From positions 1 to 40,183 of the forward strand of contig JAGLDC010000041.1 in the NCBI GenBank assembly GCA_023145965.1: a stretch of DNA of 40,183 nucleotides, written 5' to 3'. This DNA comes from a bacterium (GTDB lineage: Bacteria; UBP14; UBA6098). The translations under genes were made by a program, and so were the position numbers. Shown piece by piece: positions 11,049 through 27,494 of the stretch. Every line of letters starts with the position of its first letter. Positions within the stretch are counted from its first letter, which is position 1. Below the pieces are notes generated by a model, which worked only from the letters and a program-made list of their open reading frames with translations, made no database searches and was not told the DNA's origin.

Positions 11049-11106
11049 GATGTCTCCTGATTTGTTATGGCCATCGATCGATTTTTTGCGTCTCTGGAGG
11101 GTAATT

Positions 11107-11148
11107 TTTCGGGGGGCATGAAATGCAATCTTTCCTCGCCCCCCGAAA
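11107..11148. repeat. G6/C6 hairpin downstream of the capsid gene
   Basis: TTTCGGGGGGC (11107-11117) pairs exactly with GCCCCCCGAAA (11138-11148) over a 20-base loop. No T-run follows in either direction. It lies in the 223-base gap between the capsid and connector genes, which otherwise shows no gene, and may stabilise or process the capsid mRNA. Confidence 0.6.
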
Positions 11149-11271
11149 TCATCGGTGTGCTAGATTTAGATTTTTTATAAATATTGTCTCTATTTCCAGC
11201 TCACCGTTAGGCTGTGAATTTATAACAGCTCTCAGCGCCCATGAAGAGCGCATTTAATCGAAGTGAATACA

Positions 11272-12405
11272 CTAACTCGTTGCAAGGTTCTTTATGAGGC
11301 CGTGTGCATAAAGAGCATTGTGAACCTCTAGTGTGTATTCGCCTATTATTCTTCTTGCGATGTAGTCCGCAGCCTCAGAAGGGGTTGCGGGAAGATCACT
11401 AAAGGCGCGGTCACGCATGGGAACAAGAGCAAGTTTTGTTGAATCTAGAAGTGCAATCTTATCTTGAGGGAAAGCGGTATCTATGATGATACGCTCCACC
11501 ATACCAAGCGGAAGATCGCCAACAAATTCATAAACAGCTCCACCTGTGCGCTCATCTGACCAGGTTGTCCTAACAGTAGGTGTCGAACCCGAGGCAGTGT
11601 TGAAAGCCGAGATAGCGCGTGCCTGAAAGGTATTGCAGACCAGTATATTAGGTCTTCCACCATCGGCAGCGATCTTTTCAATGAGATCGTTGAGATCGTC
11701 TGCGCTAATGGCTCCAGCCTCGGCATCGATTACATTTCCATCAGCTTTATCGAGGAAATAGAGTAATCCACCCATGGTTCTCGGAATCGAAGCGTCGGAT
11801 GTATTAACGTATCTCCTGCCATAGATAACTGCCGCATTCATCTCGATCTGTAGCAATTCTAGGTGATGTTTAATGTGAAAGTCCACAAGGTCCTCTATAG
11901 CAAGGTGTTCAGAAGCTACAGCAGATTTAGAGACCTTAGCCGTGCGGTCGAAAATCTGTGAATAGTTAAATTCTGAAGATGGTTCGGTAACCGCGTCATA
12001 GCCAGGATCGCTTCCTTCTGAACGCGGCCGCGAGATGACCCTAACTACCGTATCGTCATCCATACCAACAGCGCTGGTTCCACCGTATGCTCGGGATACG
12101 GTGAGAGTCGCGCCATCAATAGATGTTACACGGATGATCTCATCGTAATTGTCGAAAGCGAGAATATCTCCAGCAGCAAACTTCGAGCCGGTATCGACAT
12201 CGATCTCAGTGTCGGTTGAGAGAATTGCGCCATCCAAGACATCGATGGTCGGTTCGATAACATCCTCGAGCCATTCGTGTTTGTAGTTTTTGCTTTTCCC
12301 TCGAATCGGAATTATCGAGAGTAAGTTGTGTTGTCCTTTAGATAGAATCTCGAAAGTTTCACCTAAGTCGCGTTTAAGATTCGAGAAATCGTAAGATGTT
12401 TCCAT
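11272..12405 (-). CDS. Major capsid protein, SU10-like HK97 fold
   Basis: A 377-aa protein resembling the SU10_MCP family, an HK97-fold shell protein. Recognisable points are an N-terminal LKRDLGETFEILSK helix region, a beta-rich insert with GSKFAAGDILAFDN and VTVSRAYGG-like strands (about 70-120), TAKVSKSAVASEHLA (about 160), the spine helix with IEMNAAVIYGRRYVN, and the RTMGGLLYFLDK segment. It has no obvious N-terminal delta domain, consistent with the separate scaffold gene upstream. ATG 12405 is preferred over 12456 because AAAGGA precedes it. The gene is bracketed by G-rich hairpins at 11107-11148 and 12461-12491. Confidence 0.82.
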   Translation of the reverse strand: METSYDFSNLKRDLGETFEILSKGQHNLLSIIPIRGKSKNYKHEWLEDVIEPTIDVLDGAILSTDTEIDVDTGSKFAAGDILAFDNYDEIIRVTSIDGATLTVSRAYGGTSAVGMDDDTVVRVISRPRSEGSDPGYDAVTEPSSEFNYSQIFDRTAKVSKSAVASEHLAIEDLVDFHIKHHLELLQIEMNAAVIYGRRYVNTSDASIPRTMGGLLYFLDKADGNVIDAEAGAISADDLNDLIEKIAADGGRPNILVCNTFQARAISAFNTASGSTPTVRTTWSDERTGGAVYEFVGDLPLGMVERIIIDTAFPQDKIALLDSTKLALVPMRDRAFSDLPATPSEAADYIARRIIGEYTLEVHNALYAHGLIKNLATS

Positions 12406-12460
12406 TGTGTTTCCTTTCTTTTTGTTGGTTTTTAATTCATCATCGTTAAGCTTCATTCTC

Positions 12461-12491
12461 GGGGGGCGTCAGAATTTTCGTGACGCCTCCC
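12461..12491. repeat. G6 hairpin upstream of the capsid gene
   Basis: GGGGGGCGTCA (12461-12471) pairs with TGACGCCTCCC (12481-12491) with one G:T pair and a 9-base loop. The 16 bases GGGGGCGTCAGAATTT (12462-12477) recur exactly at 27342-27357, at the edge of the large branched element there. It separates scaffold and capsid cistrons. Confidence 0.65.
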
Positions 12492-12503
12492 TTAGCTTTC
12501 ACA

Positions 12504-12992
12504 TTAGCGTAAGGCTTTCAGCATGCTTAATGTATCACCAGCGGCCCTAGCAAGAGTCAATTCATCGCCCTTTGAGCGCGAGAATCCTGCATTATCGACC
12601 CTTGGTGGTGGTAACATTTCTTGGAACAGCTCAGGAAAACCATCCTTAAGCTGTGATATTACATCGATCGCAATCTTCGATGGATCTTCATCGGATTCGT
12701 CGAATTGAGCTATCTTAAAAGCAGCATCTAGTCTTTCGGGGCGAATATTCGCCCGCATTGCCTCGATACAGAAATTATCTCGAAGGCGTAGGTTTTCGAG
12801 TTCGGCGATCTTCGTCGATAGGTTTTCTTGTTCGGATTCCATCTTGGTTGTTTCTTCGAGTTTTTCTCTATATTCCCTTGCTTCTGCGTTAGCTTTTCGT
12901 TTAGCTATGATGAGTTTTTTTATGTCTTCAGGGTTAGCCTGCAATTGCTCGACAAGCGCATCATCATTGATTGTGTTGGTATTATCGTTCAT
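12504..12992 (-). CDS. Phage scaffolding protein
   Basis: A 162-aa, highly charged, helical protein with a long predicted coiled coil (about residues 25-75, AKRKANAEAREYREKLEETT and onward) and a disordered-to-helical C-terminus ending in TLSMLKALR. This resembles minor structural GP20/scaffold proteins, which guide capsid assembly and then leave. Position between portal and major capsid genes is the standard one. The start is preceded by AGAGGT, and its upstream neighbour, portal, ends 4 bases away. Confidence 0.8.
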   Translation of the reverse strand: MNDNTNTINDDALVEQLQANPEDIKKLIIAKRKANAEAREYREKLEETTKMESEQENLSTKIAELENLRLRDNFCIEAMRANIRPERLDAAFKIAQFDESDEDPSKIAIDVISQLKDGFPELFQEMLPPPRVDNAGFSRSKGDELTLARAAGDTLSMLKALR

Positions 12993-12996
12993 AGTT

Positions 12997-14403
12997 TTAC
13001 CTCTTTGCTAAGGATTTGGTTTCATTGTGGTTTTCCAACCAGAAGGCGTTATCTCGGTATTTTGCCTCGGCCTCTTCTCGTGTCATCTGGAAACGTATCA
13101 TCATGTAATCGATCGGTGTGGCCATGCCATTTTCTATAAGGAATTTCCATTCGGCGGTTTCATCTTCGGTGGACTGAGGAAGCCTGACCTCGTGAACTGT
13201 CACCGAGAGGCCGGTCTGTGGTCGAAAAAGAATTCCCTTAAAGGGGTGAGCATTAGGAAGAGAATTTGCATGTGTATTCCAAACCTTCTTAATCACCCTG
13301 AAAAGCAACTCTTCAGAATCCTCGTAAAATGGCACCGCATTTTGCCTATCCTCGAAAAGCGCGAGGTTTTCCATTACCAATGCAAAACCGCTCTTTTGGC
13401 TTCCGCTTATGGAATAATTCGCCGAACTTATGTGATACGTATTTGAAAGCCGCATAATCGCCTCGCGTATTGCTCCGAGACACTCTGTTATTGCGGGATT
13501 CGGTGAGACGAATTTGAAATCCGGTGCCCCTCCGCCAACATGGCTTAGAGGAATTGATATTGGTTTTCCGGGCGCAACTACTATTTTTTCCTTGCCGTCA
13601 TAACCTATAAGCACTGGCACACTGAATGACTGCATTTTGATAAGATGATTCAACTGAACGAGCTTAAGGTTGATAGCATCCTGCACAATTGTCAAATCCT
13701 CGCCGGCATCGACAAAATAACTCGAGAGCGGCAGGGTCTCTGCGAAACGCACGAAGGGTAATTCCCCGTAAGGATTGACGTTATCAGGATTCTCCTGTAT
13801 GCGGAGGATAACACCATCAGCGGTGAAGCGGCGATAACTCGAGCTGTCCCAATAATGATAGACGAGTGCGTCCGGCGCGAGTGTCTCTGTGCGCGGGCGG
13901 CTATATATAATCGCCTCTGCCTCGGTTGGGTCTTCGGGATCTTGAATAACATCTATTTGATCCGGCGTGAGGACATCGAGACGAATACACTTATTGCGAA
14001 AAGAGGGTTTTACCAAAACAGTCCGACAAAGTTTCACCATGCGATGAACTGTTTTTATCGTTGCGTCGTAATTTGAGTTAGACATAAGCCAATCCCATAA
14101 GGCTTTTTCTTCAGGTAAAACATCGCCTTCGGTGCTTACAAGCATCCGTGAAGCACCGCTTCTATATACCAGAGCGGTTCCATCGACTATTGTTTTGATC
14201 ACATTAACAAATTCTGGTTCGAGAGCTAACATAGAAGCATCACTATATTTTTCCTTGAGAAGCTCTAGCAAATAGGGTATCTGACGGTCGTTATAGTAGT
14301 CTATCCGTTTGGCCATCTCGCTTTTAAAGCTCCTGCGGACTGCTAGTTTTGCCGAGAGAAGGATTCTCTCTACCCATTCTTCGGCACGCGATTTTGGAAA
14401 CAT
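12997..14403 (-). CDS. Phage portal protein (SPP1 gp6-like)
   Basis: A 468-aa portal-family protein. Recognisable are the N-terminal AKRIDYYNDRQIPYLLELL segment, the PEFVNVIKTIVDGTALVYRS strand/helix, the clip-to-wing region VLTPDQIDVIQDPEDP, NPYGELPFVRFAE (near 225), the long stem helix with DLTIVQDAINLKLVQLNHLI, and a C-terminal EDETAEWKFLIENGMATPID helix region. It forms the dodecameric ring through which DNA is packaged and contacts the terminase. Length is normal for the family. AAAGGAGAACC gives a very strong RBS. Confidence 0.88.
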   Translation of the reverse strand: MFPKSRAEEWVERILLSAKLAVRRSFKSEMAKRIDYYNDRQIPYLLELLKEKYSDASMLALEPEFVNVIKTIVDGTALVYRSGASRMLVSTEGDVLPEEKALWDWLMSNSNYDATIKTVHRMVKLCRTVLVKPSFRNKCIRLDVLTPDQIDVIQDPEDPTEAEAIIYSRPRTETLAPDALVYHYWDSSSYRRFTADGVILRIQENPDNVNPYGELPFVRFAETLPLSSYFVDAGEDLTIVQDAINLKLVQLNHLIKMQSFSVPVLIGYDGKEKIVVAPGKPISIPLSHVGGGAPDFKFVSPNPAITECLGAIREAIMRLSNTYHISSANYSISGSQKSGFALVMENLALFEDRQNAVPFYEDSEELLFRVIKKVWNTHANSLPNAHPFKGILFRPQTGLSVTVHEVRLPQSTEDETAEWKFLIENGMATPIDYMMIRFQMTREEAEAKYRDNAFWLENHNETKSLAKR

Positions 14404-14552
14404 GGTTCTCCTTTCGTTCGATTTATCGATTTTCTAATATTCTATAAAAACAAAGGATCAACCGTTGGTTGACCCTCATTGTTGATTCCAAATTTTATGG
14501 AAAAATGTTAGGCGAATATCGGGGTGGAACAGCCCCCCCTTTTCAATATTTT

Positions 14553-16049
14553 TTACCCAAACCTCCATTCTGCAGTTTTAAGAGGCGTGACGAAATCTAT
14601 CATGTAACGAAGGGCATCCATTGTGTGATCGTGAACGTTGTCTTTAAGGGGAAGCTCTCCGATTGGCTTGCCATTTTTATCCATAGGGTAAGTATAACTC
14701 TGGAAATCGTCGATAAGGCGCTTGCAACGTGGGTCGATTTCCAGATCGACCTGTCCACTTGCCGAAAGTAACTTTGCGCGCACCGCGTTAACCCCTTGAA
14801 GTATCGGAGAACGGACGACAGCCGTCCTGGTAATGCCCATACCGGTTATCGAAGAAAGCGAAGATTCCCCTCCGGCCTCTTGCCTCGATTGAAGACCTTC
14901 AGCACCTGAGATTATCCTCTCTACTCGCGAATACGGCACTCTCGCTTGGAAACTTCGCCCAGGAAGCGGTACCGCATCGCCAATAATTGCTGCAGCAATA
15001 CTTTCCAATCTAAGATGCTGTTCGACAAGCTCATCGAAGATCACCCACCTACCCTTTGGCGATAATTGTGCCCATATTACAGCCGATGGGTGAGTCCAGC
15101 CAAAGTCTATACCAATGAACACAGGCCAATCATTCTTTATTTGCCAATGTTTTCCGAGGATATTTATCTGCGGAGAAAAATCTTCGTAAACACAAAAACC
15201 ATCGTCCTCGAAACTAGCCTCGAACTGTTGGCGAAAATAACGCGAGTCCATCTGTCTTCGAGCACGTTCTATCTCAACATTATTTATTAATGGATTCTCG
15301 CTCGTTTTTGCTGTAAAAAATTCCGCATCAGCATCCCCAGCCCAACTTTGGACAAGATTCCAAACCCAGTTTTTTCCGCGTGGTGTTGTTGATAAAAATC
15401 CCGGCCCGCCTGTCGATATTGTTCTTGCGACAAGAACCTCCCACACCCTTTTAGGAAGCTGTGCCGCCTCATCCAGGTGGAACCAATCGAGAGTGAGGCC
15501 CATAAGCCGATCAGGGTTATCTGCGCTGCGAAAAAGTATCTTACTTCCGTTGTCGAGCAACATATCTCCAATAGAGGCGTTCCACTTTGCAATTCTGCCT
15601 TCGGCGAGTTCGGCATACTGCGGAACGAGGACATCGCGAGCCATACCTGTCGTCGGTGCCACTGCAGCTCCGGTTGTTGGAAGTAGCAGCGCTCTTTTAA
15701 GGCCTTTCAGCGCACCACTGAAAGTTTTGCCGCTGCGCACACCTCCTATAAAGGCAGTGAATCGAGCCTTCGACTCGACAAATTTCTCTTGACATGGGAA
15801 AAGTTTGGGCGATATTACACATTTATGTGCATTATTTACAAATTCAGGTATCTCACCTATTTTTTTGAGAAGATCGGTGGCATCTTTTAATTCTTTAACT
15901 TTAAAATCGGGATTAGCGATTATTTTATCTATTCTTTCAATCACTGCGTTTTCTGGGTTTATGTGGTTTTGCTCTGTTGTGGGCACTTCGTTTTTTAAGG
16001 TAAATTTAAGAGCAGAACTATTTTTCTTAGGTTTTATTTTTTCGGACAT
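14553..16049 (-). CDS. Phage terminase large subunit
   Basis: A 498-aa packaging motor and nuclease. Walker A is GGVRSGKT (about residue 102-109), Walker B with the catalytic Glu is LDWFHLDEAAQ, and the coupling motif is FLSTTPRGKNW. The RNase H-like nuclease is marked by FIGIDFGWTHPSAVIW and the late HDHTMDALRYMID acidic motif. About 80 residues before the ATPase (with KVKELKDATDLLKK) are an extra helical N-terminus. No separate small terminase is present upstream, where the next gene is divergent hypF. AAAGGAATAT precedes the ATG. The portal start is 149 bases downstream. Confidence 0.93.
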   Translation of the reverse strand: MSEKIKPKKNSSALKFTLKNEVPTTEQNHINPENAVIERIDKIIANPDFKVKELKDATDLLKKIGEIPEFVNNAHKCVISPKLFPCQEKFVESKARFTAFIGGVRSGKTFSGALKGLKRALLLPTTGAAVAPTTGMARDVLVPQYAELAEGRIAKWNASIGDMLLDNGSKILFRSADNPDRLMGLTLDWFHLDEAAQLPKRVWEVLVARTISTGGPGFLSTTPRGKNWVWNLVQSWAGDADAEFFTAKTSENPLINNVEIERARRQMDSRYFRQQFEASFEDDGFCVYEDFSPQINILGKHWQIKNDWPVFIGIDFGWTHPSAVIWAQLSPKGRWVIFDELVEQHLRLESIAAAIIGDAVPLPGRSFQARVPYSRVERIISGAEGLQSRQEAGGESSLSSITGMGITRTAVVRSPILQGVNAVRAKLLSASGQVDLEIDPRCKRLIDDFQSYTYPMDKNGKPIGELPLKDNVHDHTMDALRYMIDFVTPLKTAEWRFG

Positions 16050-24728: not shown

Positions 24729-27332
24729 ATGAAAATGAAATTTTTTTACATCTCCCTGCTTGTTGGCGCAATTATCGCCTCACCTATAAGAATAGCCAGA
24801 GACACTCACGCCTGGGCTTCTGGAACGAACAACGCCCGGACTATCGTTTCAGATTCAGTAGGAAGACTATTTGTAGTTTACTCGGGGCTTTCTGGTTCCT
24901 ATTATCAAATCTATATAGCCATGAGTTCAGACGCTGGTGCTTCATGGAATCCGACCTGGGCTACTTTATCATCGTCTGCATCTAATAATCTCTCGCCCTC
25001 GATAGCTATAGATTCAGATGATACACTCCATATTGTGTGGCGAGGCGAGGTTGTTAGCGGTTCTGACGCTGATTTACTATATTCGAAATATCCTTCGCCG
25101 GTAATAACAACAATATGCACTCATACTGGTTATCCGGGCGCAAATTGTCCCTCGATAGCCGTCGATTCGTTGGATAATCTCCATGTTGTCTGGACAGGAT
25201 GCCCCTCCGCTTGGACAGTGCGTTATGCTTACTGCGATCGCGCAACAGGCGCATGGGGATCGAGTGAACCCATAGGAACAAGGACACCTTCGCGCTGGCC
25301 ATCGATCGAGGTTGATGCCGAAAATCGACCCCATGTAGTTTATCGCAATCAATATAGCGGACATTACCATTGTGCGCACCGCTATAAAGACAGCGGTGCG
25401 TGGATAGGCTTCAATGGAGCATCACATGATACTCTCGATCAGCTTCCAGCCTCAGTTGAATATACTTCAATTTTTATTGATACTCTCGATAATATACATG
25501 CAATCTGGGAATGGATGACCGCTTTTGCAAGTAACCCGGATTCAGTGAGATATAGAAAATACGATCATCTCTCGGGTAATTGGCTCCCGACATTTACTCC
25601 TTACGGCAATTCTGCTACGGATGCACATACATCGTTCAACGGCGATGTAGTCACAGATGATGAAGGAAACCTATTCATACTTTATCACGACAACGATAGC
25701 ATATTTTGTGCTGTCTCCAGTGATCTTGGAACAACATTCCCTATTGATACACTGTTACAAAATGATCTCCATGCGCGGTATCCTAACGCTCGCGGAAGTC
25801 TATGGCCGAATTTCAACAGACCATCGGGTGGATGTATAGATTATATTTGGACCTGGAATGACCCCGACAGTGCAACCATATCTCTTATGTTCGACAGGAT
25901 GTGCATCGAAGCTGAAGATATAGAAACAACTGAAGTTTGCGCAGAATTTATCGAGCCGCTGGATAGCGCATGGTCATCTTGTTCAGATCAGACTATTGTT
26001 ATGAACATCGGTTGTTGTTTCTCAGATGAAACATTGAAGGTATTCTCAGACACAACAACCGTCGAATACTATGATTCGATATCAATGAACTGGATTTCAA
26101 CTATAGCGCCCGATCCTGACGATTGGGGAACATATTGGATTCACCTAGATAGCTCAGAATGGGTATGGAGCTGCTATCCCGCTTCGAGTAGTCATGGCGA
26201 CTGGTTTCGTTCGATAATTGACTTTGATTGTCCTGATATAGATACAGCCTTTATCAGGATACAATGTGATAATAAGGCTTATATCTATGCCAATGGCACC
26301 TATGTTGACACAACCCACGGCAATCCGGGGGGAGGGTCAGCAGGTTGGCGAACGCTCTACGAGTTTGACCTTACCCCATATTTCCACGGTGGAGAAGATA
26401 CTGTTTCGATAATTGGTTATAATTCCGGTGGTTATGCTGGAATGATGTTCGAAATCGGCATTATCTGCGCCTCATCTTGCTGTGGAGGAATCGATACTTC
26501 TTCTATTGATTTTACTGTTAACGGCGAACATTATTCGATTTTCGATCCCGAGCTTAGCTGGGATGGCGATTCAACACTGACATTCACCCCCATTGCACCG
26601 GATACTTTAGAGGACGGTGATACTGTTGTTGCATGTTTGTTAACAGTCGAGGACACCTGCACAGGAGCTTTAGACTCCTCTATTTGCAGAACATTCTTTG
26701 TAGATTTAACAGCACCTTTTATCTATGATATTTTGCCAATCCCGGGATCTATTGTTGACGATTTTTCGCCCAACATCGAGTTTTATCTTGTGGATTCACT
26801 CTCTGGTCTCGATACATCGAGTGTTGTTTTCACAGTCGAAGGCGTTTCAGAAATTCCTACCCTCTCCGGCTTATCTCCTTGGAGCTATATATGGACTCCT
26901 GACAGTGCCTTCAATCGTAACGATACAGTGGATATCTGCGTCGTAGCAACGGATTCGACGGATTATTGCCCAGATAATATACTCGATACATGTTGGTCTT
27001 TCATAGTCCGACCTTGCAGTCCTATGGATATTAGCGTGGAATGCCCGCTTCCTTGTTTTGCTTTCTCCTCCTGTAGCACTGGAGCCGTCGTGTTTAGTGT
27101 GTCCGATAGCACTGACGCCGGAATAGACACCTCGAGAGTGTATGTCAGTGTGATCCGCGTGATCCATAGCACTTACGACACAACATATATCTCCTCTCCT
27201 TCTCCATTCATTATTTTCGATTTTACTGCAGATACAACAATTACTGTTTGGGGAAACTGGTCGGATGGTGACAGCGTTTTTATTCAACTTGACAGTCTCT
27301 ATAATCTCGATGGCTGTTTAACTGTGCCTTAA
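24729..27332 (+). CDS. Large secreted protein with BNR/sialidase-like N-terminal repeats
   Basis: An 867-aa exported protein (signal peptide FFYISLLVGAIIA). Residues about 20-390 contain sialidase-like Asp-box elements (SSDAGASWNP) and repeated 'PSIAIDSDDTLHIVWRG / PSIAVDSLDNLHVVWTG / PSIEVDAENRPHVVYRN' patterns forming a predicted beta-propeller. Residues about 400-590 resemble a jelly-roll or PA14-type domain with many Cys, and 590-867 appear to be Ig-like. No sorting domain is visible at the C-terminus, which ends abruptly 9 bases before a palindromic element. Likely cell-surface or secreted; no catalytic residues can be assigned. Confidence 0.8.
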   Translation: MKMKFFYISLLVGAIIASPIRIARDTHAWASGTNNARTIVSDSVGRLFVVYSGLSGSYYQIYIAMSSDAGASWNPTWATLSSSASNNLSPSIAIDSDDTLHIVWRGEVVSGSDADLLYSKYPSPVITTICTHTGYPGANCPSIAVDSLDNLHVVWTGCPSAWTVRYAYCDRATGAWGSSEPIGTRTPSRWPSIEVDAENRPHVVYRNQYSGHYHCAHRYKDSGAWIGFNGASHDTLDQLPASVEYTSIFIDTLDNIHAIWEWMTAFASNPDSVRYRKYDHLSGNWLPTFTPYGNSATDAHTSFNGDVVTDDEGNLFILYHDNDSIFCAVSSDLGTTFPIDTLLQNDLHARYPNARGSLWPNFNRPSGGCIDYIWTWNDPDSATISLMFDRMCIEAEDIETTEVCAEFIEPLDSAWSSCSDQTIVMNIGCCFSDETLKVFSDTTTVEYYDSISMNWISTIAPDPDDWGTYWIHLDSSEWVWSCYPASSSHGDWFRSIIDFDCPDIDTAFIRIQCDNKAYIYANGTYVDTTHGNPGGGSAGWRTLYEFDLTPYFHGGEDTVSIIGYNSGGYAGMMFEIGIICASSCCGGIDTSSIDFTVNGEHYSIFDPELSWDGDSTLTFTPIAPDTLEDGDTVVACLLTVEDTCTGALDSSICRTFFVDLTAPFIYDILPIPGSIVDDFSPNIEFYLVDSLSGLDTSSVVFTVEGVSEIPTLSGLSPWSYIWTPDSAFNRNDTVDICVVATDSTDYCPDNILDTCWSFIVRPCSPMDISVECPLPCFAFSSCSTGAVVFSVSDSTDAGIDTSRVYVSVIRVIHSTYDTTYISSPSPFIIFDFTADTTITVWGNWSDGDSVFIQLDSLYNLDGCLTVP

Positions 27333-27341
27333 TCGGCCCAA

Positions 27342-27494
27342 GGGGGCGTCAGAATTTATTTACCTAGAGGAAAACGCGTTTTCCTCTAGGTAAATAAATT
27401 AGCTGAATGCCGAAGCTTTATATTTATTTCACCTTCTACCATCGACCGGCATTCGGCCTACGTTGCACCCACTGGTGCAACGACCGACGCCCCC
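27342..27494. repeat. Branched palindromic element with a perfect 48-bp palindrome
   Basis: Outer arms GGGGGCGTC (27342-27350) and GACGCCCCC (27486-27494) pair exactly. Between them are three further stems. The first is a perfect 48-base palindrome with no loop (27353-27400, centre ACGCGT at 27374-27379). The second is GCTGAATGCCG (27402-27412) with CGGCATTCGGC (27447-27457), with one T:G pair. The third is CGTTGCACC (27461-27469) with GGTGCAACG (27474-27482). Together they could fold as a four-way structure in single-stranded DNA or RNA. No gene is in this gap (27333-27610). The first 16 bases recur at 12462-12477. Confidence 0.8.

What the first reader, a model, noticed from the sequence alone, without database searches (positions are those of the whole stretch)
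27342..27494. Four-stem branched element with GGGGGCGTC...GACGCCCCC outer arms
The palindrome is one of three hairpins enclosed by exact outer arms, giving a cruciform-like layout in single-stranded form. It resembles a non-autonomous palindromic mobile element or a structured ncRNA.
Basis: partly seen in the sequence, partly recalled or inferred. Interest (0 to 1): 0.65.

Follow-up and report, generated by a model that had tools for sequence, protein, structure and literature searches.

The report
Dispersed DNA repeat forming four-way junction
This is one copy of a previously unlisted family of about 150-base DNA repeats, scattered between genes in a few related uncultured bacteria, whose strands can fold into a four-armed cross; the arms change sequence but almost always change together, so the cross itself is being preserved at the DNA level.

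Summary
At 27342-27494 exact 9-bp outer arms enclose three hairpins (fold z = -11). It is not unique. A covariance model finds about 25-28 copies in this genome, about 40 and 21 in two congeners (one is UBP14_UBA6098), 6 in a third genome of the family, and none in another family member or in the other families of the class. Inner stems covary strongly: 79 double-changed cells against 30±4 in shuffles. In one congener 898 of 903 inner pairs are Watson-Crick over 21 copies, while unpaired bases are only 58% identical.

The pairing looks DNA-level rather than RNA: G·T 31 against A·C 27 mismatches, whereas tRNAs of a congener have 19 against 0. There is no Rfam match.

Copies are intergenic and hug gene 3' ends. 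They form species-specific subfamilies, with both empty and occupied orthologous sites and internal-deletion forms, but no target duplications. Best reading: a non-autonomous, REP/MITE-like dispersed palindromic element, new in architecture. The mobiliser is unknown; a low-copy Y1 transposase is a weak candidate. Species-uniform stems beside near-random loops remain unexplained.

The parts
27342..27350 (+). 5' outer arm GGGGGCGTC; core GGCGTC is conserved across the family
   Evidence: exact complement of 27486-27494; arm nearly invariant in 11 copies
27353..27400 (+). H1: perfect 24-bp palindrome with GGAAAAC..GTTTTCC tip
   Evidence: in the 11-copy alignment 13 of the 20 pairs of this helix carry double changes
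27402..27457 (+). H2: 11-bp stem (27402-27412/27447-27457) with a 34-nt loop of nearly fixed length and highly variable sequence
   Evidence: 12 of 13 stem pairs carry double changes
27461..27482 (+). H3: 9-bp hairpin CGTTGCACC-CACT-GGTGCAACG
   Evidence: 6 of 8 pairs carry double changes
27486..27494 (+). 3' outer arm GACGCCCCC
12461..12491 (+). mini copy: outer arms joined by a short loop; it contains GGGGGCGTCAGAATTT, identical to the 5' end of the full window copy; probably an internal deletion
   Evidence: covariance model 18.8 bits; full copies sit at the orthologous place in G002
11098..11241 (+). decayed copy downstream of the capsid-like gene
   Evidence: covariance model 36 bits; sequence

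Best explanation
A copy of a family-specific, non-coding, dispersed DNA repeat (about 130-170 bp) that folds at the DNA level, as an extruded cruciform or as single strand, into an almost fully paired four-way junction. It most likely spreads as a non-autonomous REP/MITE-like element: the conserved GGCGTC outer arm and species-specific stem sequences would be what a trans-acting enzyme recognises. Only copies that still fold are propagated or kept, and arm-to-arm template switching probably helps keep the arms complementary. Copies persist mainly just after stop codons, where they harm least or have been co-opted. Shown: the fold, multiplicity, covariation, lack of an RNA-type G.U signature, gene-end location, empty and filled orthologous sites. 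Inferred: active mobility, the recognising protein, arm correction.
For: About 25-28 copies in own genome; about 40, 21 and 6 in G002, G001 and G003, none in G004 or the other families of the class. Covariation far above shuffles and slid controls. G001: 898/903 inner pairs Watson-Crick, paired identity 91% against 58% unpaired. Zero unpaired junction bases in 11/12 G001 and 18/31 G002 copies. G.T 31 against A.C 27, p=0.69; well-formed copies 7 against 5 over 1441 WC pairs; tRNA control 19 against 0. Species-specific stem subfamilies. Orthologous sites empty in G002 for several G000 copies (L032, L043, L049) and filled for L041 and L046. Deletion derivatives.
Against: No target-site duplication. 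No autonomous element bounded by the same arms seen among the GGGGGCGTC sites of the genome, and no transposase among the most frequent families of 121 flanking proteins. The Y1 transposase also occurs in genomes without the repeat and is not flanked by it. Some sites look anciently shared (capsid gene flanks). In G001 the stems are uniform while the loops are near-random, which simple recent transposition does not explain.
Confidence: 0.6

Rival explanations
1. A host-maintained chromosomal DNA site: the extruded or single-stranded form mimics a Holliday junction and is bound by a recombination, nucleoid or topology protein; copies are kept by selection at gene ends.
For: Near-perfect four-way junction without unpaired bases; in 21 G001 copies only 5 of 903 inner pairs are not Watson-Crick; some orthologous sites occupied in two species; 3'-end location.
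Against: Orthologous sites often empty; copy number and stem sequences differ sharply between congeners; absent from G004 and sister families; decayed copies exist in the window genome.
Confidence: 0.2
2. A structured ncRNA or mRNA 3'-end structure (stabiliser, attenuator) acting as RNA.
For: Strong covariation; position often 4-50 bp after stop codons, including within a capsid operon.
Against: G.T and A.C mismatches equally frequent, unlike tRNAs of a congener; model often scores well on both strands; mixed orientation relative to adjacent genes and many divergent intergenic sites; no Rfam match.
Confidence: 0.12
3. Old neutral palindromes kept perfect only by replication template switching between arms, with no mobility and no selection.
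For: Predicts paired double changes without G.U intermediates and no strand bias, as seen.
Against: Does not explain a shared four-part layout, the conserved outer arm, species-wide stem identity or loops evolving much faster than stems.
Confidence: 0.06

Closest known systems
REP/BIME sequences and TnpA_REP (RAYT) transposases
   Same: Dispersed intergenic palindromes; the folded single strand is the substrate of a Y1 (HUH) transposase (PMC8266576). A low-copy Y1_Tnp gene of about 133 aa is present in the genomes that carry the repeat.
   Different: REPs are 20-50 nt hairpins with a GTAG foot. This is a 130-170 nt four-way junction, no GTAG foot was seen in the copies read, it is not next to the Y1 gene, and the Y1 gene also occurs where the repeat does not.
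MITEs
   Same: Short, non-coding, dispersed, with terminal inverted repeats and internal deletion forms.
   Different: No target duplication, no parent transposon with these ends found; the inner sequence is three covarying hairpins.
Integron attC sites
   Same: Folding conserved more than sequence; uniform within a species, different between species (general knowledge).
   Different: No integron integrase above the curated cut-off; copies dispersed, not in cassette arrays; different layout.
Double-hairpin elements of fungal mitochondria (from memory)
   Same: Small mobile palindromic DNA elements with compensatory stem changes.
   Different: Two hairpins, mitochondrial; recalled only, no paper on them was found or read here.

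Membership tests
REP/BIME | 20-50 nt palindrome preceded by conserved tetranucleotide (GTAG) | tested here: not met
   element is 130-170 nt with four stems; hairpins abut directly and the foot reads GGCGTCG.., not GTAG (definition from PMC8266576)
REP/BIME | associated Y1 transposase (TnpA_REP) flanked by its repeats | tested here: not met
   Y1_Tnp present in low copy in G000-G004, but no copy of the element in about 1.5 kb either side, and the gene also occurs in genomes without the element
REP/BIME | dispersed in intergenic regions | tested here: met
MITE | terminal inverted repeats | tested here: met
   GGGGGCGTC arms; complementarity extends about 8 bp outward of the core
MITE | target-site duplication | tested here: not met
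   no clear excess of flanking direct repeats in 55 copies
MITE | autonomous transposon sharing the ends | tested here: inconclusive
   none seen among the 28 GGGGGCGTC sites of the own genome; assembly is fragmented (139 contigs)
Integron attC | integron integrase in genome | tested here: not met
   TIGR02249 only below cut-off, as in all control genomes
Structured ncRNA | covarying stems | tested here: met
Structured ncRNA | excess of G.U over A.C on the functional strand | tested here: not met
   31 against 27; tRNA control 19 against 0
Structured ncRNA | expression | not testable with these tools
   no transcriptome available
Intrinsic terminator | GC-rich hairpin followed by T run | tested here: not met
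   no consistent T run after either arm in the 55 copies listed

The most novel reading that the evidence does not exclude
A DNA element that works by presenting a Holliday-junction-like four-way junction, with loops re-diversified each time a copy is made or converted, spread and homogenised within each species by a dedicated and still unknown recombination system.
Probability: 0.2. Interest if true: 0.85.

Novelty: new variant of a known kind. Interest (0 to 1): 0.62.

Why it matters
Folding DNA elements kept by structure rather than sequence are known mainly as REPs and attC sites. A family in which the kept structure is a closed four-way junction, with species-specific stems and near-random loops, gives a clean natural case for asking how DNA-level structure is selected, copied and homogenised, and which enzymes act on junction-forming DNA in uncultured bacteria.

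Tried and rejected
(1) H2 loop as a guide matching its own insertion site: rejected. Loop against own flanks is no better than against other copies' flanks; mean z is between -0.03 and 0.14, and own-flank-best rows were 1-4 of 65 against 4 expected. An apparent match in one copy (L057) was the lead and did not generalise.
(2) H2 loops captured from elsewhere in the genome: rejected for G002. Longest matches averaged 12.9 nt against 12.4 for shuffles and 13.4 for flank segments.
(3) Target duplications: none.
(4) Integron: no integrase above cut-off.
(5) Orientation bias against GC skew: none (p=0.58, 28 copies).
(6) Wider taxonomic spread: pattern hits in Vannielia, Clostridium, Spirosoma and others, and in two viral contigs, do not match the model as whole elements.
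(7) Gene-function theme of neighbours: none obvious (only the 25 most frequent families were shown).
(8) L032/L095 first looked like orthologous copies, but they lie on opposite sides of the same gene; the L032 site is empty in G002.
(9) A first G.T/A.C count over all possible helices was contaminated by chance helices and was replaced.

Full report
WHAT IS THERE. The outer arms 27342-27350 and 27486-27494 are exact and enclose three hairpins: H1 (a perfect 24-bp palindrome, 27353-27400), H2 (11 bp, 34-nt loop) and H3 (9 bp). The fold is far more stable than shuffles (z = -11.1). The element begins 9 bp after the stop codon of the 867-aa ORF (24729-27332) and lies before the next co-directional ORF. 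Rfam has no match above a family's gathering score.

A FAMILY. A DNA search of the own genome gave partial matches in two other contigs, which carry the same four stems. The pattern GGGGCGTC..GNATTT occurs 11 times, against 0 for the reversed control. A covariance model (R1, 11 copies) finds about 25-28 distinct copies in the own genome. The sensitive search finds about 40 in G002, 21 in G001, 6 in G003, none in G004 (80% complete, 480 contigs) and none in 12 genomes of three other families of the class. A further 44 genomes of the domain gave none with stricter filters. So the window is from a close relative in candidate phylum UBP14. Pattern hits elsewhere do not match the model as whole elements.

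COVARIATION. On 11 copies, 79 cells are double-changed against 30±4.3 in shuffles and 13-27 in slid versions; the covariation score is 0.356 against 0.145 shuffled. H1, H2 and H3 carry all of it; the outer arm is nearly invariant in this genome. In G002 the outer part of the arm also varies with compensation. In G001, 21 copies in unrelated flanks have 898 of 903 inner pairs Watson-Crick. Of the five exceptions, four are the same G.T pair in one subgroup. Paired columns are 91% identical, unpaired 58%, the 3-nt H1 loop 41% and the H3 loop 40%. The junction itself has no unpaired bases in 11/12 G001 and 18/31 G002 copies.

DNA OR RNA. If one strand were selected as RNA, G.U should be tolerated and A.C not. 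Over 2467 Watson-Crick stem pairs the elements show 31 G.T and 27 A.C (p=0.69). Among 42 well-formed copies (at most one mismatch) the counts are 7 and 5 over 1441 pairs. In 19 tRNAs of G002 the same count is 19 and 0 (Fisher p=7e-5); note that the tRNA finder itself favours G.U. Orientation relative to adjacent genes is mixed. I conclude that pairing is preserved at the DNA level, or without strand preference. Arm-to-arm template switching would give the same symmetry and may contribute.

LOCATION AND MOVEMENT. Copies are intergenic; the larger overlapping ORFs in the GC-rich genomes are likely spurious, though two G003 copies lie in long open frames. In co-directional gene pairs the element is nearer the upstream stop than the downstream start in roughly 31 of 37 cases (my tally; crude ORF calls). 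In G002, whose genome I read to about 60%, conserved gene pairs surrounding G000 copies show empty sites (for example L032, L043, L049) and filled sites (L041/L103, L046/L087). Two full G002 copies flank a capsid gene at the places where the window has a mini copy (12461-12491) and a decayed copy (11098-11241). Stem sequences are characteristic of each species. No target duplication was found. No element with the same ends and a transposase was seen. A Y1 transposase gene of about 133 aa is present in low copy in all five genomes of the family, including one without the repeat, and is not flanked by copies. It is a candidate mobiliser only.

WHAT REMAINS ODD. Within G001 the stems are nearly identical between copies while loops approach randomness, yet between species the stems are entirely different. 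Slow neutral decay, or ordinary recent transposition, would each predict loops and stems to behave alike. Loop guides and loop capture were tested and rejected. Strong constraint on each copy, short-tract conversion restricted to the conserved blocks between loops, or loop change during copying could each explain it. None is shown.

VERDICT. A real, new, lineage-restricted family of dispersed junction-forming DNA repeats. It works most like a REP/MITE-type non-autonomous palindromic element but fails defining tests of both, so it is not filed as a member of either.

Noticed in passing
window 11272-16049 (- strand): Prophage- or gene-transfer-agent-like structural cluster (terminase-, portal-, scaffold- and capsid-like ORFs by reading; not run against a family library), at least partly conserved in G002, where full copies of the repeat flank the capsid gene.
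   Followed up: partly
L211, L209, L212, L213, L210: Low-copy Y1_Tnp gene of about 133 aa in every genome of the family examined; the HUH motif and a putative catalytic Tyr look intact by eye.
   Followed up: partly
L103 1501-1653, L107 1501-1666, L088 1501-1679: Some G002 copies carry a second loop of about 31 nt, in H1 as well as H2.
   Followed up: no
L052 and L055 (G003): Two G003 copies are longer (171 and 220 bp), lie in long open frames and carry large loops in two hairpins.
   Followed up: no
L111, L045, L049: Decayed copies occur in the window genome, whereas the 21 G001 copies all have intact stems; tempo differs between species.
   Followed up: no
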